Position numbers and translations under genes: made by a program
Shown: piece after piece, positions 12,542 through 29,125 of the stretch
Position numbering within the stretch: position 1 is the stretch's first letter
Layout: each line of letters opens with the position of its first letter
From: a virus
Direction: 5' to 3' (one strand)
IMG/VR virus record: IMGVR_UViG_3300005260_000048
Coordinates: 1-30,468 of that record
Length of the DNA: 30,468 nucleotides
Notes under the pieces: generated by a model
What the model was told of the DNA's origin: nothing
Seen by the model: only the letters and a program-made list of their open reading frames with translations
Databases searched by the model: none

Positions 12542-13387
12542 TTAGACGAAGCTAATCTTGACGGCGGTGTTGCTGCGAAGAGCTGTGGTGCCATAGATGA
12601 CATCACTGCGCTGTTCCCAAGCACCAGAACGAACGTTGTCCCAGCCAGTTACGTCAACACCCTTTTGGAGTGCGAGCGCAGCTGACTCTTTGTGGAACAT
12701 CAGGGCGTACCCGGAACCGATGTTGTTAGAGACACGAACCTCGATGCCATACAGGGCGAGGACACGGCCACTCACAACCGGCTTACCGTTGGTATCCATG
12801 ATGTAGTCCGAGCTGGAGAAGCGAGTCTCAGCCAAGATGTCATTGAATCCATCTGGGTTAACTGCCAAGGTGACGTTTTCCCAGTCCTGGACGTTCTGCT
12901 CACCGAGCACCTGCATAGCTGCACGGATCTTGCTGTCAGTCAGGCCGGTAGAGTTAGCTGCTATTGCGTAGCTAGCACCACCAGCTGTAACAGAAGCAAG
13001 TATAGCGGTCACAACATCTTGCTCGATCGCGTCGTTCAGGACATAGGCTGCATCAGTGGTGTACTTAGAGCGAAGCTTGTACTTGCTCTGCACTTCCAGC
13101 ATCTTGTAGATCTGGTGCGCTTTGTACTTCCACTTGTTGATAGCTAACTGGATTGCTGTCTCGGTAGCGGTGTCAAAGGTGACATCCGTACCCTGAGCCA
13201 GGTCACGAGCTGAGCCTGAAGTACTGAACGGCAGGATGTTAATCGACTGGCCGTACTCTTTTACTTCGTCGTCATAGCGGTCGATACGTTCCGCTAGAAC
13301 TAGCTTCTTTTTAAGGTAATCTAATGTATCTGCTGCCCACAGTTGCGGGCGATAATCTGAATGGGTTGTGGTTGTTGAACCTGCCAT
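12542..13387 (-). CDS. major capsid protein, HK97-fold (P22 coat / T7-like)
   Basis: 281 residues. N-terminal YRPQLWAADTLDYLKKKLVLAERIDR is followed by a strand segment (YGQSINILPFSTSGSARDLA) and a spine helix region (TDAAYVLNDAIEQDVVTAIL). The A-domain-like region contains VTLAVNPDGFNDILAETRFSSSDYIM and YGIEVRVSNNIGSGYALMFHKESAAL. This order matches coat proteins of short-tailed phages. It directly follows the scaffold gene in transcription order. There is no N-terminal prohead protease or delta-domain, in keeping with a separate scaffold. Confidence 0.85.
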   Translation of the reverse strand: MAGSTTTTHSDYRPQLWAADTLDYLKKKLVLAERIDRYDDEVKEYGQSINILPFSTSGSARDLAQGTDVTFDTATETAIQLAINKWKYKAHQIYKMLEVQSKYKLRSKYTTDAAYVLNDAIEQDVVTAILASVTAGGASYAIAANSTGLTDSKIRAAMQVLGEQNVQDWENVTLAVNPDGFNDILAETRFSSSDYIMDTNGKPVVSGRVLALYGIEVRVSNNIGSGYALMFHKESAALALQKGVDVTGWDNVRSGAWEQRSDVIYGTTALRSNTAVKISFV

Positions 13388-13457: not shown

Positions 13458-14210
13458 CTATGACAACAAGTTGTTCACGATCTTCTGTGTCTCAGGCTTC
13501 GCACGTTCGGCTGATGATAGCCCCGCATACCAGGAGTCGAAGTTGTCCTTCGTCACCTCGGCGGTACCCATTGCCGATGTCGTCGCCGCACCGTGTATCG
13601 CTTTCGCTTGCTGTTTAGATGCGACGTCTTGGAGTGCTTCTTTCCCGCCAGCGGCTTTCAAATCAGCATCACGATTGGTATCACTACCACGAGCCATGCT
13701 GTATAGCTGATCGAGTGATAGATAGCCAGACTTCACGAGCAGCCCGAGGTTCGGGTTCTCTGTGACAATCTCAGCCATCTTCGGCTCTAGCGTTCGGTCA
13801 TGGCCTTCCTGTTGCCAGAAGTCATTGACCGCTAGTTTCAACTCAACCGCTTGGATGCGGGCGAGCGCCGGGTCGTCTTCTGATCCTTGGGCCGGCGTCT
13901 CAGGCTGCTGCAGCGCTTTTCCAAGCTCTGATGCCTGTTGACGGGTGCGCTGATACTCCGCCTGGTTATCCATAGCGATTTTGGCTGCTTTTAAAGCCCC
14001 CTCGCTGTCAAGGGTAATGCCCTTGCTCTCGGCGTAAGCTTTCAGCTTCTCATCCACTTCGGGTACTGATGCACCTGCATCGCCCGCGGTTGATGATTTA
14101 TCTTGCTGTTCGCTGGTGCTATCCGCCGGTTGTTCCGCCGTTTGCTCTGGTAGTGCTTCTTCAGCGCCAGGACTGCCGGCAGAGGTCTCGGTAATGGGTT
14201 GTTCGTCCAT
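13458..14210 (-). CDS. scaffolding protein
   Basis: 250 residues. It is highly acidic and glutamine/serine-rich at the N-terminus (residues 1-60), with helical, coiled-coil-prone middle (LKAAKIAMDNQAEYQRTRQQ) and a C-terminal helical region (NFDSWYAGLSSAERAKPETQ). Composition, size and position directly before the major capsid gene are those of phage scaffold proteins that guide procapsid assembly and then leave. No protease motif is seen. Confidence 0.75.
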   Translation of the reverse strand: MDEQPITETSAGSPGAEEALPEQTAEQPADSTSEQQDKSSTAGDAGASVPEVDEKLKAYAESKGITLDSEGALKAAKIAMDNQAEYQRTRQQASELGKALQQPETPAQGSEDDPALARIQAVELKLAVNDFWQQEGHDRTLEPKMAEIVTENPNLGLLVKSGYLSLDQLYSMARGSDTNRDADLKAAGGKEALQDVASKQQAKAIHGAATTSAMGTAEVTKDNFDSWYAGLSSAERAKPETQKIVNNLLS

Positions 14211-14268
14211 TGAACGTTCCTCCGTTTATTATCTATATCCCCTAACCACGGCTCAAGGTGGTTAATTG

Positions 14269-14520
14269 TTAGTTGGGGCAGTCACTACAGCCAGTCGTAC
14301 TGCCATTGCATCCGTTCTTGCATTTTGTTTCTTTTTCGTTGAGCAACCGCAAACTATCAAGTCTGTTGCCCCTGGCGTCGTAGCAGCGAATCTTCCACTC
14401 GCTACCAACAAAGGATTGGTCGTACTCAATCATTATCTTTGTTGTACCCTCGGGAAATTGATTCAAGAGGGTATTGCCTATATCTTTGTAAAAAGTAAGT
14501 ATGTTGCTTTGGATATGCAT
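14269..14520 (-). CDS. small hypothetical protein with cysteine-rich tail
   Basis: 83 residues from the ATG at 14520, which has AAGGA at good spacing; the longer frame would need TTG. The body has alternating strands (TKIMIEYDQSFVGSEWKIRCYDARGNRL) and the tail holds C-K-N-G-C and C-S-D-C, giving four cysteines within 15 residues, a possible metal site. It lies between the scaffold gene and a structured non-coding stretch. Not recognised. Confidence 0.65.
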   Translation of the reverse strand: MHIQSNILTFYKDIGNTLLNQFPEGTTKIMIEYDQSFVGSEWKIRCYDARGNRLDSLRLLNEKETKCKNGCNGSTTGCSDCPN

Positions 14521-14571
14521 AGCTATTCCTTTCAACTTGAGCCGCAGATAGGGATATAGATTGTTAATGTC

Positions 14572-14682
14572 GCAACCCTCGACCTAGCCGCAGACTCATT
14601 AGGGTAAGTGGAGGTTTTTAGCCTCTAGCAATTTGCTTTTAGTTGCAAAACGCTCTGCTGCTAGGTGTTGGGTCGGGGTTGC
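14572..14682 (-). ncRNA. candidate multibranched structured RNA in the late transcript
   Basis: Read on the minus strand, a nested stem closes the whole element. GCAACCC (14682-14676) pairs with GGGTTGC (14578-14572). CG then pairs with CG across bulges (one side 1 nt, other side 7 nt). ACCTAG pairs with CTAGGT (14666-14661 with 14587-14582), then GCAGA with TCTGC (14658-14654 with 14594-14590). About 20 base pairs enclose about 60 bases with two hairpins: TTTGC/GCAAA with loop AACTAAAA, and GAGG/CCTC with loop CTAAAAA. Both loops carry CTAAAA. It is not a tRNA by T-arm or anticodon criteria. It sits between the 84-residue portal-linked gene and the scaffold region, inside the likely polycistronic late mRNA. 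Function unknown. Confidence 0.5.
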
Positions 14683-14727
14683 CCCCGCTACTGCCATCGA
14701 GTGATAGCACTAGCCGAGGCACACCAG

Positions 14728-14982
14728 CTAATTCTTCTTATCGAAGTGCCCCCCTTCTAGTAAGCGTGCACGCTCTTGTAAGAAGTCGATAGCAAGCTTG
14801 ACACCAGCTGCGCGCTCAACACACATAGCTTTCTGCGCAAGCGATAATCCATGCTTCTCAGCCTCTTGGTGCAGTGCGTTGTACTGAAGCGAGAGCTGGG
14901 TGATGTAGTACTTGCCGAACTCACTGCTGAGAAAGATCTGACACAGCTCGGCTACCTTCTTTGCGGTTAGCTTGTCTTTCAT
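14728..14982 (-). CDS. small helical protein coupled to the portal gene
   Basis: 84 residues, helical throughout, with LTAKKVAELCQIFLSSEFGKYYITQLSLQYNALHQEAE and AAGVKLAIDFLQERARLLEGG. A protein of this type occurring beside portal genes would fit a head-assembly factor, but I cannot name a family. Its ATG overlaps the portal stop by 4 bases (ATGA), so it is translationally coupled. The next gene is separated by the structured non-coding region. Confidence 0.65.
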   Translation of the reverse strand: MKDKLTAKKVAELCQIFLSSEFGKYYITQLSLQYNALHQEAEKHGLSLAQKAMCVERAAGVKLAIDFLQERARLLEGGHFDKKN

Positions 14983-16673
14983 GCTGCTACTCCTTGCGGT
15001 GCCATCTCAGGAGCCGGCCCGGCGCCAGGCATGGGGCCTGCTGCCTCTCCTGGTGCCCCTGTCGGCATGGATGGCTGCATAGGCTTCTGTGAGCCGATTA
15101 TCTTGTCCAGCTCTTCCTCGGACAGGTCGAACATCTTGGGGTAGAGAATCTTCTTCGCTTCCCATAGGTCGTTGGTGGGATCAGCAATGATGACCTCGTA
15201 CGCCTGGGTGGTCTGTTGCTGCGTCTTCTGCTTCTGATTCTGAATGTTCGCTTCAAGCTGGATTTTCGGCTCGTAGGTCTCATCAAAGTGAGATGGGTCG
15301 TACTGCATGAACTTCGGGCCACCAACCGAGCTGACCGGCACGAGCTGCTTCTCTTTGATGTGGTGCAGCATCATCTTGTAGACGATCTTCGCCCGCTGGT
15401 AGAAGCCTTCACGCTCCAACATGCGGATGTAGAGATCGAAGCGTTGGCCGGCTTGGTTAAGCTGCGCCTTTATCTCAGTTGCGGTGTTAGTTTGGTCGCT
15501 CACCGTGCCTTTGACTATTTGATCGACGCCAGTGGCTTCATTTATCTCATTCTTGATGTTAAGTCGCTCATTGAAGGCCGCGGATGGCACGATTGGCTTA
15601 GTCACTGGCGCGAGCGAGCCAGGCTTAAACGGATGCACGGTGCCGGGAGCGTTTGTTAAGTCTTCAAGGTAATCCGAATAGACCGGGTCGAGCTCGTACT
15701 GTGGATTCAAGATGTCAGTCACCGCGTCGACGCTCTGGTTCGTCATGTCGTTCAACAGCTCGACGGCCTGAGCGATAGGATCAATGATGGCCTTGCCGTA
15801 GATGATGGATTCGTCAGCGATGAAGCGGTGAATCACGAGGTTATGCATGCCCAGGTCGTTTGGTCGGTTCTCTATCTCAGTCGTGCGGTTGGCAACGCTC
15901 CGGATAGTCTCGCCATCGTTAATCTCGATGACTTCCACCAGCTTTGAGCTATCGCCGATGGAGCCGATGAACATCTCTTTCAACTCTTTATCGGTCTGAT
16001 CACCATTCCCCTTGCCTGGTATGACACCGGATAGGTTGCTGAAGCGGTTCTTAACCTTCTTGGTATCCGGATCAAGGATCACCTCGGCTTCAAGCGCTTC
16101 TTTGGTCGTCATATAGCGGCGACCGGTGTAGAAATCCTTTGGATCGGTAATAAGCTGCATGGGATCTGTCAGCTTGGGATCAATGATCGCGTCGCGCACC
16201 GGCAGGTTGATGATGCGTGGCTTATCCACATCCCAGTACACATACTCACAGCTCGTACCAAAGATGAAGCCATTGCGAATCGTCTTGATACTCTTAACGT
16301 CCCAGTTGTCGCAGTCCCAGAAGTAATCGAACTGGGCGTTGAGCGCCTTGAGGTTCGGCTCCTTGCCACCGTTTTGATAGGTGGTCATGATGTACTGGAA
16401 CATGTCTTGCGGGACGAAGTCGATCGATGGCCGGCCGGCGGCGAGCGCAGCGGTGATCGTCTCGACCATTGAGAAGGGCATCGGCACGAACGTATTGGTA
16501 ATGCCCTTGTAACTTTCCATCCAACGCTGGTTGTTGTACAGCTTGTAGTTACGCTTCCAGCGGTCGTGATGGTTATCTTTAGCGTACGTCCATGAGCTGT
16601 CGAATAGATCTACGACGTCTTTTACCGCAGCGGTGGGCTTGCGTTTGTTGCTGTTGTTTGATGCTTTAGCCAT
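14979..16673 (-). CDS. portal protein (P22-like)
   Basis: 564 residues from ATG 16673; an in-frame GTG at 16694 is possible, and neither start has a convincing Shine-Dalgarno. The portal forms the dodecameric ring for DNA entry and exit. Matching features: DRWKRNYKLYNNQRWMESYKG, FVPMPFSMVETITAALAAGRPSIDF, GFIFGTSCEYVYWD, and the helical barrel region with LNQAGQRFDLYIRMLEREGFYQRAK. The C-terminus ends in a glutamine-rich coiled coil and a Pro/Gly/Met tail. It lies 61 bases downstream of TerL, the usual order. Confidence 0.88.
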   Translation of the reverse strand: MAKASNNSNKRKPTAAVKDVVDLFDSSWTYAKDNHHDRWKRNYKLYNNQRWMESYKGITNTFVPMPFSMVETITAALAAGRPSIDFVPQDMFQYIMTTYQNGGKEPNLKALNAQFDYFWDCDNWDVKSIKTIRNGFIFGTSCEYVYWDVDKPRIINLPVRDAIIDPKLTDPMQLITDPKDFYTGRRYMTTKEALEAEVILDPDTKKVKNRFSNLSGVIPGKGNGDQTDKELKEMFIGSIGDSSKLVEVIEINDGETIRSVANRTTEIENRPNDLGMHNLVIHRFIADESIIYGKAIIDPIAQAVELLNDMTNQSVDAVTDILNPQYELDPVYSDYLEDLTNAPGTVHPFKPGSLAPVTKPIVPSAAFNERLNIKNEINEATGVDQIVKGTVSDQTNTATEIKAQLNQAGQRFDLYIRMLEREGFYQRAKIVYKMMLHHIKEKQLVPVSSVGGPKFMQYDPSHFDETYEPKIQLEANIQNQKQKTQQQTTQAYEVIIADPTNDLWEAKKILYPKMFDLSEEELDKIIGSQKPMQPSMPTGAPGEAAGPMPGAGPAPEMAPQGVAA

Positions 16674-16734
16674 GTACTGATGATTTAAGAACACCTATTA
16701 TGATCTGCATTATAAATCATGCTCATGGTTTTGC

Positions 16735-17922
16735 CTATCTTTGATTTATACGCTGCTGCACCCATGCTGGCGTCTTAGAGCGAGTTACCTTCATAGGCCG
16801 TAGGCTTTCCATGCCGTAGCGGGCGGCGTCGAGTGCGTGGTCATTACCACGCTCAGGCTCATTTATCTGCTTACCATCTCTGTCAGTCATCCATAAATAA
16901 CCCCGATACTCACGGATGAGGTTTACGGACTGCTTGGTCACACTGATCTTCTGCTCCTGGACGAACCCTATACTGGCCTTCAAGTATGACTTCTTGCCAT
17001 CGCCCACCTTCTTTGCACCCAAGATATTGACGCCGTATTGCTTCACTTCCTCAATGCTCTTAGGTTCTGCTGAGTCTGCCATGACGAGCGTGTTCGGCCG
17101 ATCGAGCATATTCAGAAAGTCAGCAAGTGGCTTGTTCGTCATTCCCTTGCGATATAGCCGCTCGTTAAGTATATAGCCGCCGTTGTAGTAATAGATGTCC
17201 ACTATGGCCGCTGGGTCGACACTAAAGCCGAAGTCCAGGCCACGACGCTCTAGGCGTGCCTCGAAGGGAATGTCATCTATGATCTGCCAGCCGGTGTAGA
17301 TGCGTCCCTCAACCTCACCGAGCTGCCCGAGGCCGTAGACCTGCCACCAGTTCTTGTTGTACTTGTGGCTCTCGATGTCCTGCACGATCGAGGCGTCCAG
17401 GCCCTCGTTGTCGAGGTAGGTCAGCGTCAAGAAGTCGTGCTCATAGTTGGGTACGACTTCCGTGTACCACCAGAACTCACTGACGGGGTTCCAGTCGAGC
17501 CAGATGGTCTTACGCGTACGGATGCGCAGCTGGTCGAACGCTTCATACGGGATGTTGTTGGCTTCGTTGACGAACAACACATCACGCCGAGGACCACGGA
17601 CCTTGCCCGGCTGGTCAGCGCTGAAGAACTCAATCTTGCTGCCAGTCTCGAACGTGTAGGTGAAGTCGGTCTTACTCCAGCGATCGTCCTTGTAGTAGCC
17701 CTGCGCCTCCATGATGTTCAGGAAGTCACGCATAGCACCGCGGCGAAGGTGTGGGAAGCTCTCAGAGACAACACTGATTAACTCGCCCTTAGTGCTCTGG
17801 GCGTAGTCAATGAGGATCTGCAAGATAGAGATGGTCTTGCCGGCCGACGTACCACCAGCCACACCACGGATGCGCTTGTTGAGCTTAAGAAGCTTGTGGG
17901 TCGCTGTCGTCGGGACGAACAT
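16735..17922 (-). CDS. terL: terminase large subunit, PBSX-type (TerL)
   Basis: 395 residues. This is the packaging motor ATPase and headful/cos nuclease. Walker A is GGTSAGKT (23-30). Walker B is DVLFVNE (114-120), with a catalytic Glu at 120. The RNase H-like nuclease domain has LDFGFSVDPAA (D230), MADSAEP (D283) and NDHALDAARYG (D361, D365). The length is short compared with T4-like TerL but normal for the PBSX/Terminase_3 group. The ATG overlaps the TerS gene by 38 bases. It works with TerS (upstream) and the portal (downstream). Confidence 0.92.
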   Translation of the reverse strand: MFVPTTATHKLLKLNKRIRGVAGGTSAGKTISILQILIDYAQSTKGELISVVSESFPHLRRGAMRDFLNIMEAQGYYKDDRWSKTDFTYTFETGSKIEFFSADQPGKVRGPRRDVLFVNEANNIPYEAFDQLRIRTRKTIWLDWNPVSEFWWYTEVVPNYEHDFLTLTYLDNEGLDASIVQDIESHKYNKNWWQVYGLGQLGEVEGRIYTGWQIIDDIPFEARLERRGLDFGFSVDPAAIVDIYYYNGGYILNERLYRKGMTNKPLADFLNMLDRPNTLVMADSAEPKSIEEVKQYGVNILGAKKVGDGKKSYLKASIGFVQEQKISVTKQSVNLIREYRGYLWMTDRDGKQINEPERGNDHALDAARYGMESLRPMKVTRSKTPAWVQQRINQR

Positions 17923-18280
17923 TGGTTGTGCTCACGCTGCTGCCACCGAGAATCGGCTTCGGCATTAATTGCTCACCATCTTTGCCGGTCAGCTCGGCAC
18001 GGGTGCTGAACTCATCCTTCTTCTTGCGTCCCAGGAAGTCGATAGCAAGCTTAGGATCACGCTGCAAGCCTCTGACCACTGACTTACGAGCAAGCATGAT
18101 CGGTGTTTCCTTGAGTTCAGCTTTGCGCTGTGCATACCCTGGATTCTTCTCTTGATATTGGTACAGCGTCTTTGTGCCTATGTCAGCCCATAAACAAGCC
18201 TCTACGTCACTACATCCCCAGGCGAAGGCTTCCTCTAGCTTGGCTATCACCGCCTTAGTCATGACGGTTGGTCTACCCAT
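17885..18280 (-). CDS. terS: terminase small subunit (TerS)
   Basis: 131 residues from ATG 18280, chosen because GGAGG lies 6 bases upstream; the longer frame overlaps the preceding gene fully. The N-terminal half holds a helix-turn-helix (AKLEEAFAWGCSDVEACLWADIGTKTLYQYQ) as expected for the DNA-recognition domain of TerS, then a helical oligomerisation segment (LARKSVVRGLQRDPKLAIDFLGRK). It overlaps TerL by 38 bases and the 60-residue gene before it by 8. TerS selects phage DNA and activates TerL. Confidence 0.85.
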   Translation of the reverse strand: MGRPTVMTKAVIAKLEEAFAWGCSDVEACLWADIGTKTLYQYQEKNPGYAQRKAELKETPIMLARKSVVRGLQRDPKLAIDFLGRKKKDEFSTRAELTGKDGEQLMPKPILGGSSVSTTNVRPDDSDPQAS

Positions 18281-18455
18281 CTTGCGCCTCCACGGTGACA
18301 TCAACCAACACATCCGGGGCGAAGTTATCCAGCAGCATTGCAGTTTGGTCGTCAGTACGCAGCACAACCTCATACTGCTTATCTAAACTAGCAAGCTTCT
18401 TAACGCTCACTTGCTTAATCTCGGAAGGGAATGTGACTTTGAACTTATTAGCCAT
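18273..18455 (-). CDS. small hypothetical protein, first gene of the packaging block
   Basis: 60 residues, strongly strand-forming (FKVTFPSEIKQVSVKKL, KQYEVVLRTDDQTAMLL, DVLVDVTVEAQDG). No family recognised. Its stop lies inside the TerS start region (8-base overlap), so translation is probably coupled to TerS. Confidence 0.6.
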   Translation of the reverse strand: MANKFKVTFPSEIKQVSVKKLASLDKQYEVVLRTDDQTAMLLDNFAPDVLVDVTVEAQDG

Positions 18456-28814: not shown

Positions 28815-29023
28815 ATTTCGTTCGCTTGACGAGTGTGGTATATAAACCGTTCCCGTGTTCCTGATTAGCCTGTCCGATAGGTGGAAGTCCCCCCGCTACG
28901 GTTCTTTTAGCTTGGTAGCGGTCAAGCTCTTCCACCTATCGGCTCAGGAGCACGAGGTTTCCGGTATTAAGGGTTTTCGCGGGATATTGTCTAGCTCCCC
29001 GTAACTAGCACATCTAGCAGATG
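28815..29023. other. gene-free stretch with a 99-base compound hairpin
   Basis: No coding frame is supported between 28815 and 29137. The hairpin at 28855-28953 has an outer stem GTGTTCCTGA/TCAGGAGCAC (9 of 10 pairs), a 9x1 internal loop, a perfect 14-bp stem CCGATAGGTGGAAG (28874-28887)/CTTCCACCTATCGG (28929-28942), and an inner 7-bp stem CCGCTAC (28893-28899)/GTAGCGG (28915-28921). No T run follows on either strand, so it is not a simple terminator. It may be a structured RNA or a DNA element such as a replication or nicking site. Confidence 0.6.
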
Positions 29024-29094
29024 TTGACTTTAGTTATACGCCCATGTATAAATTAAAGCAAGAACGAAAGTTCGTTGAGAAGCACATCTAGCAG
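29007..29094. repeat. 14-bp direct repeat flanking a promoter
   Basis: AGCACATCTAGCAG occurs at 29007-29020 and 29081-29094, 74 bases apart. The first copy is just upstream of the -35 of the promoter at 29024 and the second lies inside the RNA it would make. Confidence 0.75.
29024..29052 (+). promoter_or_regulatory. promoter TTGACT-17-TATAAA
   Basis: -35 TTGACT (29024-29029), 17-base spacer, -10 TATAAA (29047-29052). The same TTGACT -35 is used by the two DnaA-box promoters, but no DnaA box is present here. Predicted start near 29059. Confidence 0.7.
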
Positions 29095-29125
29095 TACCCC
29101 CTAGCAATAGGGGGCTTCTCTTTTA
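29059..29125 (+). ncRNA. probable ~66-nt small RNA or attenuator leader
   Basis: From the promoter at 29024 the transcript begins near 29059. It forms GAAC-GAAA-GTTC, a stem with a GNRA tetraloop (29062-29073). Then GAGAAG (29077-29082) pairs with CTTCTC (29115-29120), enclosing CCCCCTA-GCAA-TAGGGGG (29097-29114), again with a GNRA loop. TTTT (29121-29124) ends it as a terminator. The next gene starts at 29138, so the RNA is either independent or a leader controlling that gene. Confidence 0.62.

What the first reader, a model, noticed from the sequence alone, without database searches (positions are those of the whole stretch)
14572..14682. Multibranched structured RNA candidate inside the late transcript, beside packaging genes
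A nested closing stem of about 20 base pairs (GCAACCC/GGGTTGC, CG/CG, ACCTAG/CTAGGT, GCAGA/TCTGC) encloses two hairpins whose loops both contain CTAAAA, in a region with no coding frame. It sits between the portal-linked gene and the scaffold side. Packaging RNAs are known in phi29-like phages, but this phage has a PBSX-type TerL, so a different role is more likely (mRNA processing, translational control, or a new RNA).
Basis: seen in the sequence. Interest (0 to 1): 0.7.

Follow-up and report, generated by a model that had tools for sequence, protein, structure and literature searches.

The report
Structured RNA leading phage scaffold gene
Between two head genes of this soil phage lies a real, evolutionarily conserved folded RNA that belongs to no catalogued family and sits just ahead of the capsid-scaffold gene in its relatives, where it most likely controls how much scaffold protein is made.

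Summary
The structure is real. On the minus strand (that of the late genes) 14572-14682 folds with z = -6.2. Portal-guided searches of IMG/VR found relatives with a structured gap in the same slot: portal, small ORF, RNA, scaffold, major capsid gene. In the window's class (11 loci, plus L209 found by DNA pattern alone) the outer stem, inner stem and hairpin P4 show compensatory changes; hairpin P3 is supported by energy; P5 is marginal. A covariance model from six members recovered three of five held-out members and nothing credible elsewhere in 485 kb. About 35 more distant relatives carry another fold in the slot: a long stem whose apical loop forms a strongly covarying pseudoknot with bases ending a median 22 nt before the scaffold AUG. 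No Rfam family matched. Phage SU10 has the same gene order with no gap. The RNA persists while the capsid gene is swapped between unrelated families, so it tracks portal, small ORF and scaffold. Best reading: a cis-acting leader of the scaffold gene controlling its translation. Ligand and mechanism are inferred; an RNA-decay or processing barrier is the main rival. The pseudoknot is shown for the relatives, not for the window. In this phage alone an 88-codon ORF separates RNA and scaffold.

The parts
14572..14682 (-). Structured RNA element (E2 class): outer stem, inner stem, junction with three hairpins
   Evidence: fold z -6.2; compensatory changes in relatives; CM finds held-out relatives
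14676..14682 (-). P0 outer stem, 5' strand GCAACCC
   Evidence: 5'/3' flank pairing specific to each phage: 187 vs 143 +/- 9, 0/20000
14572..14578 (-). P0 outer stem, 3' strand GGGTTGC
14655..14666 (-). P1 inner stem, 5' strand ACCTAGCaGCAG
   Evidence: compensatory pairs in alignment A7
14582..14593 (-). P1 inner stem, 3' strand CTGCgGCTAGGT
14627..14654 (-). Hairpin P3, A-rich loop
   Evidence: summed energy of 11 relatives -70.8 vs -21.4 +/- 5.6 shuffled
14611..14625 (-). Hairpin P4
   Evidence: all 6 aligned pairs have compensatory changes
14594..14609 (-). Hairpin P5, loop CCCTAA (14599-14604); marginal support
   Evidence: p = 0.043 for the class; a loop-GGG pseudoknot is not supported in this class
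14680..14721 (-). Upstream hairpin E1, just after the small ORF stop; a hairpin recurs here in the class
   Evidence: folds of window and relatives
14728..14982 (-). Small ORF (84 aa), predicted three-helix protein, always upstream of the RNA
   Evidence: alignment A11 and AF2 model pLDDT 94.9; SU10 has a 78-aa ORF in the same place
14269..14520 (-). Orphan Cys-rich ORF between RNA and scaffold, this phage only
   Evidence: no homologue in the loci held, no Pfam family
14536..14559 (-). Left arm of the inverted repeat flanking the orphan ORF
14233..14257 (-). Right arm of the inverted repeat flanking the orphan ORF
13458..14210 (-). Scaffold gene (assigned by position and homology to the relatives' gene; no named family hit)
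   Evidence: single BLAST cluster with relatives; SU10 order portal-small ORF-scaffold-head
12542..13387 (-). Major capsid protein
   Evidence: phrog_267, Phage_capsid_2
14979..16694 (-). Portal, SU10 type
   Evidence: PF23899
16735..17922 (-). Terminase large subunit
   Evidence: PF04466/PF17288, phrog_2
17885..18373 (-). Terminase small subunit
   Evidence: phrog_4102

Best explanation
A real structured RNA that forms the intercistronic leader of the scaffold gene in the late mRNA. Shown: the fold and its conservation; its fixed slot after the small ORF and directly before the scaffold gene in relatives; the pseudoknot of the distant class ending about 22 nt before the scaffold AUG; its persistence when the capsid gene is exchanged. 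Inferred: it acts in cis on scaffold expression, most likely as a translational operator. The fold abuts the ribosome binding site, and binding by a late protein (unassembled scaffold is the first suspect, as in P22 scaffold autoregulation, known to me from the literature but not retrieved here) or a change of fold would set how often ribosomes load, uncoupling scaffold output from portal output. Confidence steps: real conserved structured element 0.95; cis-acting leader of scaffold 0.75; translational operator 0.45.
For: Compensatory changes in both classes. Portal - small ORF - structured gap - scaffold - MCP in the loci with an intact interval; 52 of 66 gaps fold with z < -3. Spacing: distant-class pseudoknot to AUG median 22 nt, 24 of 30 within 16-25; window class outer stem to AUG 15-32 nt in 11 relatives. 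Class E2 occurs with two unrelated MCP families, D1 and D2 with several, while portal, small ORF and scaffold each stay essentially one cluster. SU10 overlaps small ORF and scaffold without RNA. Precedent: the T4 gene 32 pseudoknot operator (PMC3014915, PMC535899).
Against: No expression, binding or mutational data. In this phage the scaffold AUG is 361 nt away because of an inserted ORF; the flanking inverted repeat could loop it out, but that is unproven. The pseudoknot next to the RBS is not supported in the window's own class. Different folds occupy the slot, and the two models do not cross-detect each other, so common descent is not shown. No RNA-binding domain was recognised in scaffold or small ORF.
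Confidence: 0.45

Rival explanations
1. mRNA processing or decay barrier: the fold marks or protects a new 5' end in the late mRNA (RNase III-type cleavage of the long stem, or an xrRNA-like block to 5'-3' decay by RNase J), so that scaffold and capsid mRNA outlives portal mRNA.
For: Long near-perfect stems between cistrons; the distant class has the same order of elements as plant-virus xrRNA-D (stem, nested hairpin, loop pairing just 3' of the stem), and some xrRNA-D lie between genes upstream of coding sequence (PMC6299227). Scaffold and capsid are needed in far more copies than portal (general knowledge).
Against: The covarying pseudoknot and tight spacing to the AUG are not needed for a plain cleavage site; the window class lacks a supported pseudoknot; no RNA-end data.
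Confidence: 0.3
2. A DNA-level element (packaging, recombination or protein-binding hairpin) rather than RNA.
For: Covariation alone does not fix strand or molecule; the G-U versus A-C test is not significant (26:18 and 14:11).
Against: It lies inside the transcribed late operon, the fold is better than chance on the transcribed strand by a wider margin, and it is spaced from the scaffold AUG.
Confidence: 0.08
3. A trans-acting small RNA cut from the late transcript.
For: Compact fold that could survive processing.
Against: Fixed spacing to the scaffold start; no promoter or terminator beyond chance in the window; no second copy seen in the loci searched.
Confidence: 0.07
4. A self-cleaving ribozyme of twister-like topology.
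For: Stem, internal loop, nested hairpin and loop-to-3' pseudoknot resemble the twister layout (from memory; pseudoknot shown in the distant class only).
Against: No Rfam ribozyme match down to E 5-10; no conserved unpaired core seen in the joining strands.
Confidence: 0.03
5. A phi29-type packaging RNA.
For: It lies beside packaging and head genes.
Against: No Rfam match; terminase large and small subunits are both present; coupled to the scaffold start, not a genome end.
Confidence: 0.02

Closest known systems
T4/RB69 gene 32 pseudoknot translational operator (PMC3014915, PMC535899)
   Same: Phage mRNA leader with a folded element upstream of the ribosome binding site of one gene; A+U-rich unstructured stretch between fold and start; between cistrons
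   Different: Different fold; pseudoknot shown here only in the distant class; gene is scaffold, not ssDNA-binding protein; ligand unknown; 15-32 nt rather than 67 nt from the AUG
Plant-virus xrRNA-D (PMC6299227)
   Same: Stem with nested hairpin whose loop pairs just 3' of the stem (distant class); can lie between genes upstream of coding sequence
   Different: Eukaryotic RNA viruses and Xrn1; conserved L1/L2B sequences not examined here; no resistance data; the window class has two extra hairpins
P22 scaffolding-protein autoregulation (own knowledge; no paper retrieved)
   Same: Same gene slot (portal, scaffold, coat); scaffold as the regulated product
   Different: No structured leader of this type is known to me in P22; regulation not tested here
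Phage SU10 head module (KM044272)
   Same: Portal type, small ORF, scaffold, head gene in the same order
   Different: Small ORF overlaps scaffold; no RNA
Twister ribozyme
   Same: Order of stems and pseudoknot in the distant class (from memory)
   Different: No sequence-model match and no conserved core

Membership tests
Any Rfam 15 family | Covariance-model score at or above the gathering threshold | tested here: not met
   0 hits in the window and in 15 relatives; only chance hits below threshold
T4 gene 32-type pseudoknot operator | Pseudoknot upstream of the RBS of the regulated gene | tested here: inconclusive
   Shown by covariation in the distant class; not supported in the window's class
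T4 gene 32-type pseudoknot operator | Bound and repressed by the product of the downstream gene | not testable with these tools
   needs binding and translation assays
xrRNA-D | P1 and P2 plus loop pseudoknot immediately 3' of P1 | tested here: inconclusive
   met in the distant class; not in the window class
xrRNA-D | Conserved L1 and L2B sequences | not tested
   the consensus was not available in text form
xrRNA-D | Blocks a 5'-3' exoribonuclease | not testable with these tools
   needs RNase J/Xrn1 assay
Twister ribozyme | Match to the family's covariance models in Rfam | tested here: not met
   no hit at E <= 10 for the window region and E <= 5 for nine relatives
phi29-type pRNA | Match to a pRNA model; packaging motor that uses pRNA | tested here: not met
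   no Rfam hit; terminase TerS/TerL present

The most novel reading that the evidence does not exclude
A family of phage riboregulators in which a folded leader (pseudoknotted in most relatives) senses head assembly through free scaffold or another head protein and gates translation of the scaffold gene. It would be kept through exchange of the capsid gene and would be a pseudoknot operator for a structural gene beyond the T4 gene 32 case.
Probability: 0.27. Interest if true: 0.8.

Novelty: new variant of a known kind. Interest (0 to 1): 0.6.

Why it matters
Phages must make scaffold and coat in large, balanced amounts relative to portal from one late transcript. A conserved, uncatalogued RNA sitting exactly at the scaffold start in a whole group of SU10-like phages (bacterial carriers found include Arthrobacter and Naasia) gives a concrete, testable candidate for how that balance is set. 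A 2010 review of T4 post-transcriptional control called the gene 32 pseudoknot possibly the only viral pseudoknot used in translational autoregulation (PMC3014915); this would offer another. Different folds in one slot also make a natural experiment in RNA structure turnover.

Tried and rejected
Pseudoknot P5-loop/GGG in the window's own class: the complementarity exists (ACCCU/AGGGU) but is no better matched to its own partner than to other phages' (102 vs 111 +/- 8, p 0.87); dropped for the window, where the GGG pairs in P0 instead. Strand test by G-U versus A-C counts: not significant. Stop-codon readthrough into scaffold: gap lengths vary modulo 3 (89, 91, 93 nt in L025, L033, L031), rejected. 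Capsid-protein-specific operator: RNA class is independent of MCP family, disfavoured. One common family for all classes: model R2 does not hit the E2, D2, D3 or D4 loci (one chance-level hit, E = 2), and R1 has no credible hit outside E2; not claimed. Copies in host genomes: R2 finds none in 395 genomes of the class, though an empty answer there is weak. Loose DNA pattern scan: mostly chance matches, but it yielded one genuine new member, L209. Structure search with the small ORF: no confident match. Literature on scaffold-leader RNAs: nothing relevant retrieved; the 2017 Weinberg survey of candidate RNAs is not held.

Full report
WHAT WAS CHECKED. All head genes run on the minus strand, so the relevant RNA is the minus strand of 14572-14682. 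It folds at -44.5 kcal/mol against -25.1 +/- 3.1 for dinucleotide shuffles (z -6.2, 0/200); the plus strand also folds well (z -4.1), as expected for a paired element. In a scan of the whole window, both strands, the element ranks third of 2024. Stability alone is therefore suggestive, not decisive.

SURROUNDINGS. The order is TerS (17885-18373), TerL (16735-17922), SU10-type portal (14979-16694), an 84-aa ORF (14728-14982), the RNA, an orphan 88-codon ORF, the scaffold-position gene (13458-14210) and the capsid gene (12542-13387). Phage SU10 has portal, 78-aa ORF, scaffold and head gene in the same order, with the small ORF overlapping scaffold and no room for an RNA. A more distant portal relative, MW202692, has only short gaps.

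RELATIVES. Portal searches gave about 85 loci in IMG/VR, many of them the same contig fetched twice, and eight in bacterial genome contigs, including Arthrobacter cavernae and Naasia lichenicola; other hits are in metagenome-assembled bins whose host labels are uncertain. The gap between small ORF and scaffold is structured throughout: 52 of 66 gaps have z < -3. I sorted them by eye into five classes: E2 (the window and close relatives), D1, D2, D3 and D4.

WINDOW CLASS (E2). On a sequence-only MAFFT alignment of 11 loci, P1 and P4 have 85.9% paired cells versus 70.8% in shuffles, 12 of 14 pairs with compensatory changes, and covariation score 0.553 versus 0.287 (0/500); sliding the partners destroys the signal. 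The outer stem P0 was tested by asking whether each phage's 5' flank pairs best with its own 3' flank: 187 versus 143 +/- 9, 0 of 20,000 permutations (12 loci). P3 is supported by summed energy; P5 is marginal (p 0.043). A covariance model from six members found L072 (E 2e-7), L005 (2.5e-4) and L073 (2e-3), none of which were used to build it, at the homologous place, and missed L007 and L008; the only other matches in 485 kb had E of 1 or more. A loose DNA pattern, independent of protein searches, then turned up L209 (E 8e-12), which has portal, small ORF, RNA, scaffold and capsid gene in order and an 11-bp P1.

DISTANT CLASS (D1). A 22-sequence alignment gives 83.4% paired cells versus 65.7%, 22 of 27 pairs with compensatory changes, and score 0.453 versus 0.183 (0/500). 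The apical loop pairs with the bases just 3' of the long stem (for example CUAGCCCG/CGGGCUAG, CCUGCC/GGCAGG, UCGCCC/GGGCGA). Loop and flank match their own partner at 512 versus 352 +/- 19 (0 of 20,000). The segments were registered by hand, which favours the match; on the unadjusted alignment the pseudoknot helix still pairs in 87% of cells. A model built from this class without the pseudoknot recovered 13 loci outside its training set, all in the gap, though several of these are near-duplicates of training members. The pseudoknot ends a median 22 nt before the scaffold AUG, 24 of 30 within 16-25 nt. In the window class the outer stem ends 15-32 nt before the AUG in 11 relatives.

WHAT TRAVELS WITH IT. 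Class E2 occurs with two unrelated capsid-protein clusters, D1 and D2 with several; portal, small ORF and scaffold each form essentially one cluster. The RNA is therefore unlikely to be an operator for one particular capsid protein.

THE WINDOW'S EXCEPTION. Only in this phage does an 88-codon Cys-rich ORF lie between RNA and scaffold, putting the scaffold AUG 361 nt away. It is bracketed by an imperfect inverted repeat (14536-14559 / 14233-14257) that is paired in the predicted fold of the whole interval (z -6.4) and could bring the RNA back near the scaffold start. That last step is inference.

MECHANISM. Position at the scaffold start, near-constant spacing, independence from the capsid gene and absence in SU10 favour a cis-acting scaffold leader. 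The closest functional precedent is the T4 gene 32 pseudoknot operator (PMC3014915, PMC535899). P22 scaffold autoregulation, known to me but not retrieved, makes scaffold protein the first suspect as ligand. The main rival is an RNA-processing or decay barrier; the D1 fold has the layout of plant-virus xrRNA-D (PMC6299227). Neither is tested.

LIMITS. Covariation does not fix strand or molecule, and the G-U versus A-C test was not significant. Common descent of the classes is not shown. The pseudoknot is not claimed for the window. The scaffold gene is named by position and homology, not by a family hit. Related sequences inflate shuffle-based statistics; the flank permutations and held-out model searches are the stronger tests.

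Noticed in passing
14269-14535 (-): Orphan Cys-rich ORF found in no relative held here, bracketed by an inverted repeat (14536-14559 / 14233-14257); looks like a late insertion between RNA and scaffold.
   Followed up: partly
29011-29120 (+): Strongest folding signal of the whole window (z -7.1), between ORFs near the right end; not examined.
   Followed up: no
12542-13387 (-) and relatives: Capsid genes of unrelated families are exchanged between phages whose portal, small ORF and scaffold stay homologous.
   Followed up: yes
L135, L136: Naasia lichenicola YIM 131853 carries near-identical loci of this phage type on two scaffolds, either two prophages or an assembly duplicate.
   Followed up: no
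L012, L017, L052, L067, L133-L135 gaps: Class D2 shares a hairpin loop near CCGUCCAAAG and often a second hairpin (CCUCUCC..GAGAGG); no pseudoknot partner found.
   Followed up: partly
14680-14721 (-) and relatives: Hairpin E1 followed by a GGGG..CCCC mini-hairpin directly after the small ORF stop in the window class; role unknown.
   Followed up: partly
14728-14982 (-): Small ORF predicted as a confident three-helix protein (pLDDT 94.9) without a solved relative; a similar-sized ORF sits after the SU10 portal.
   Followed up: partly
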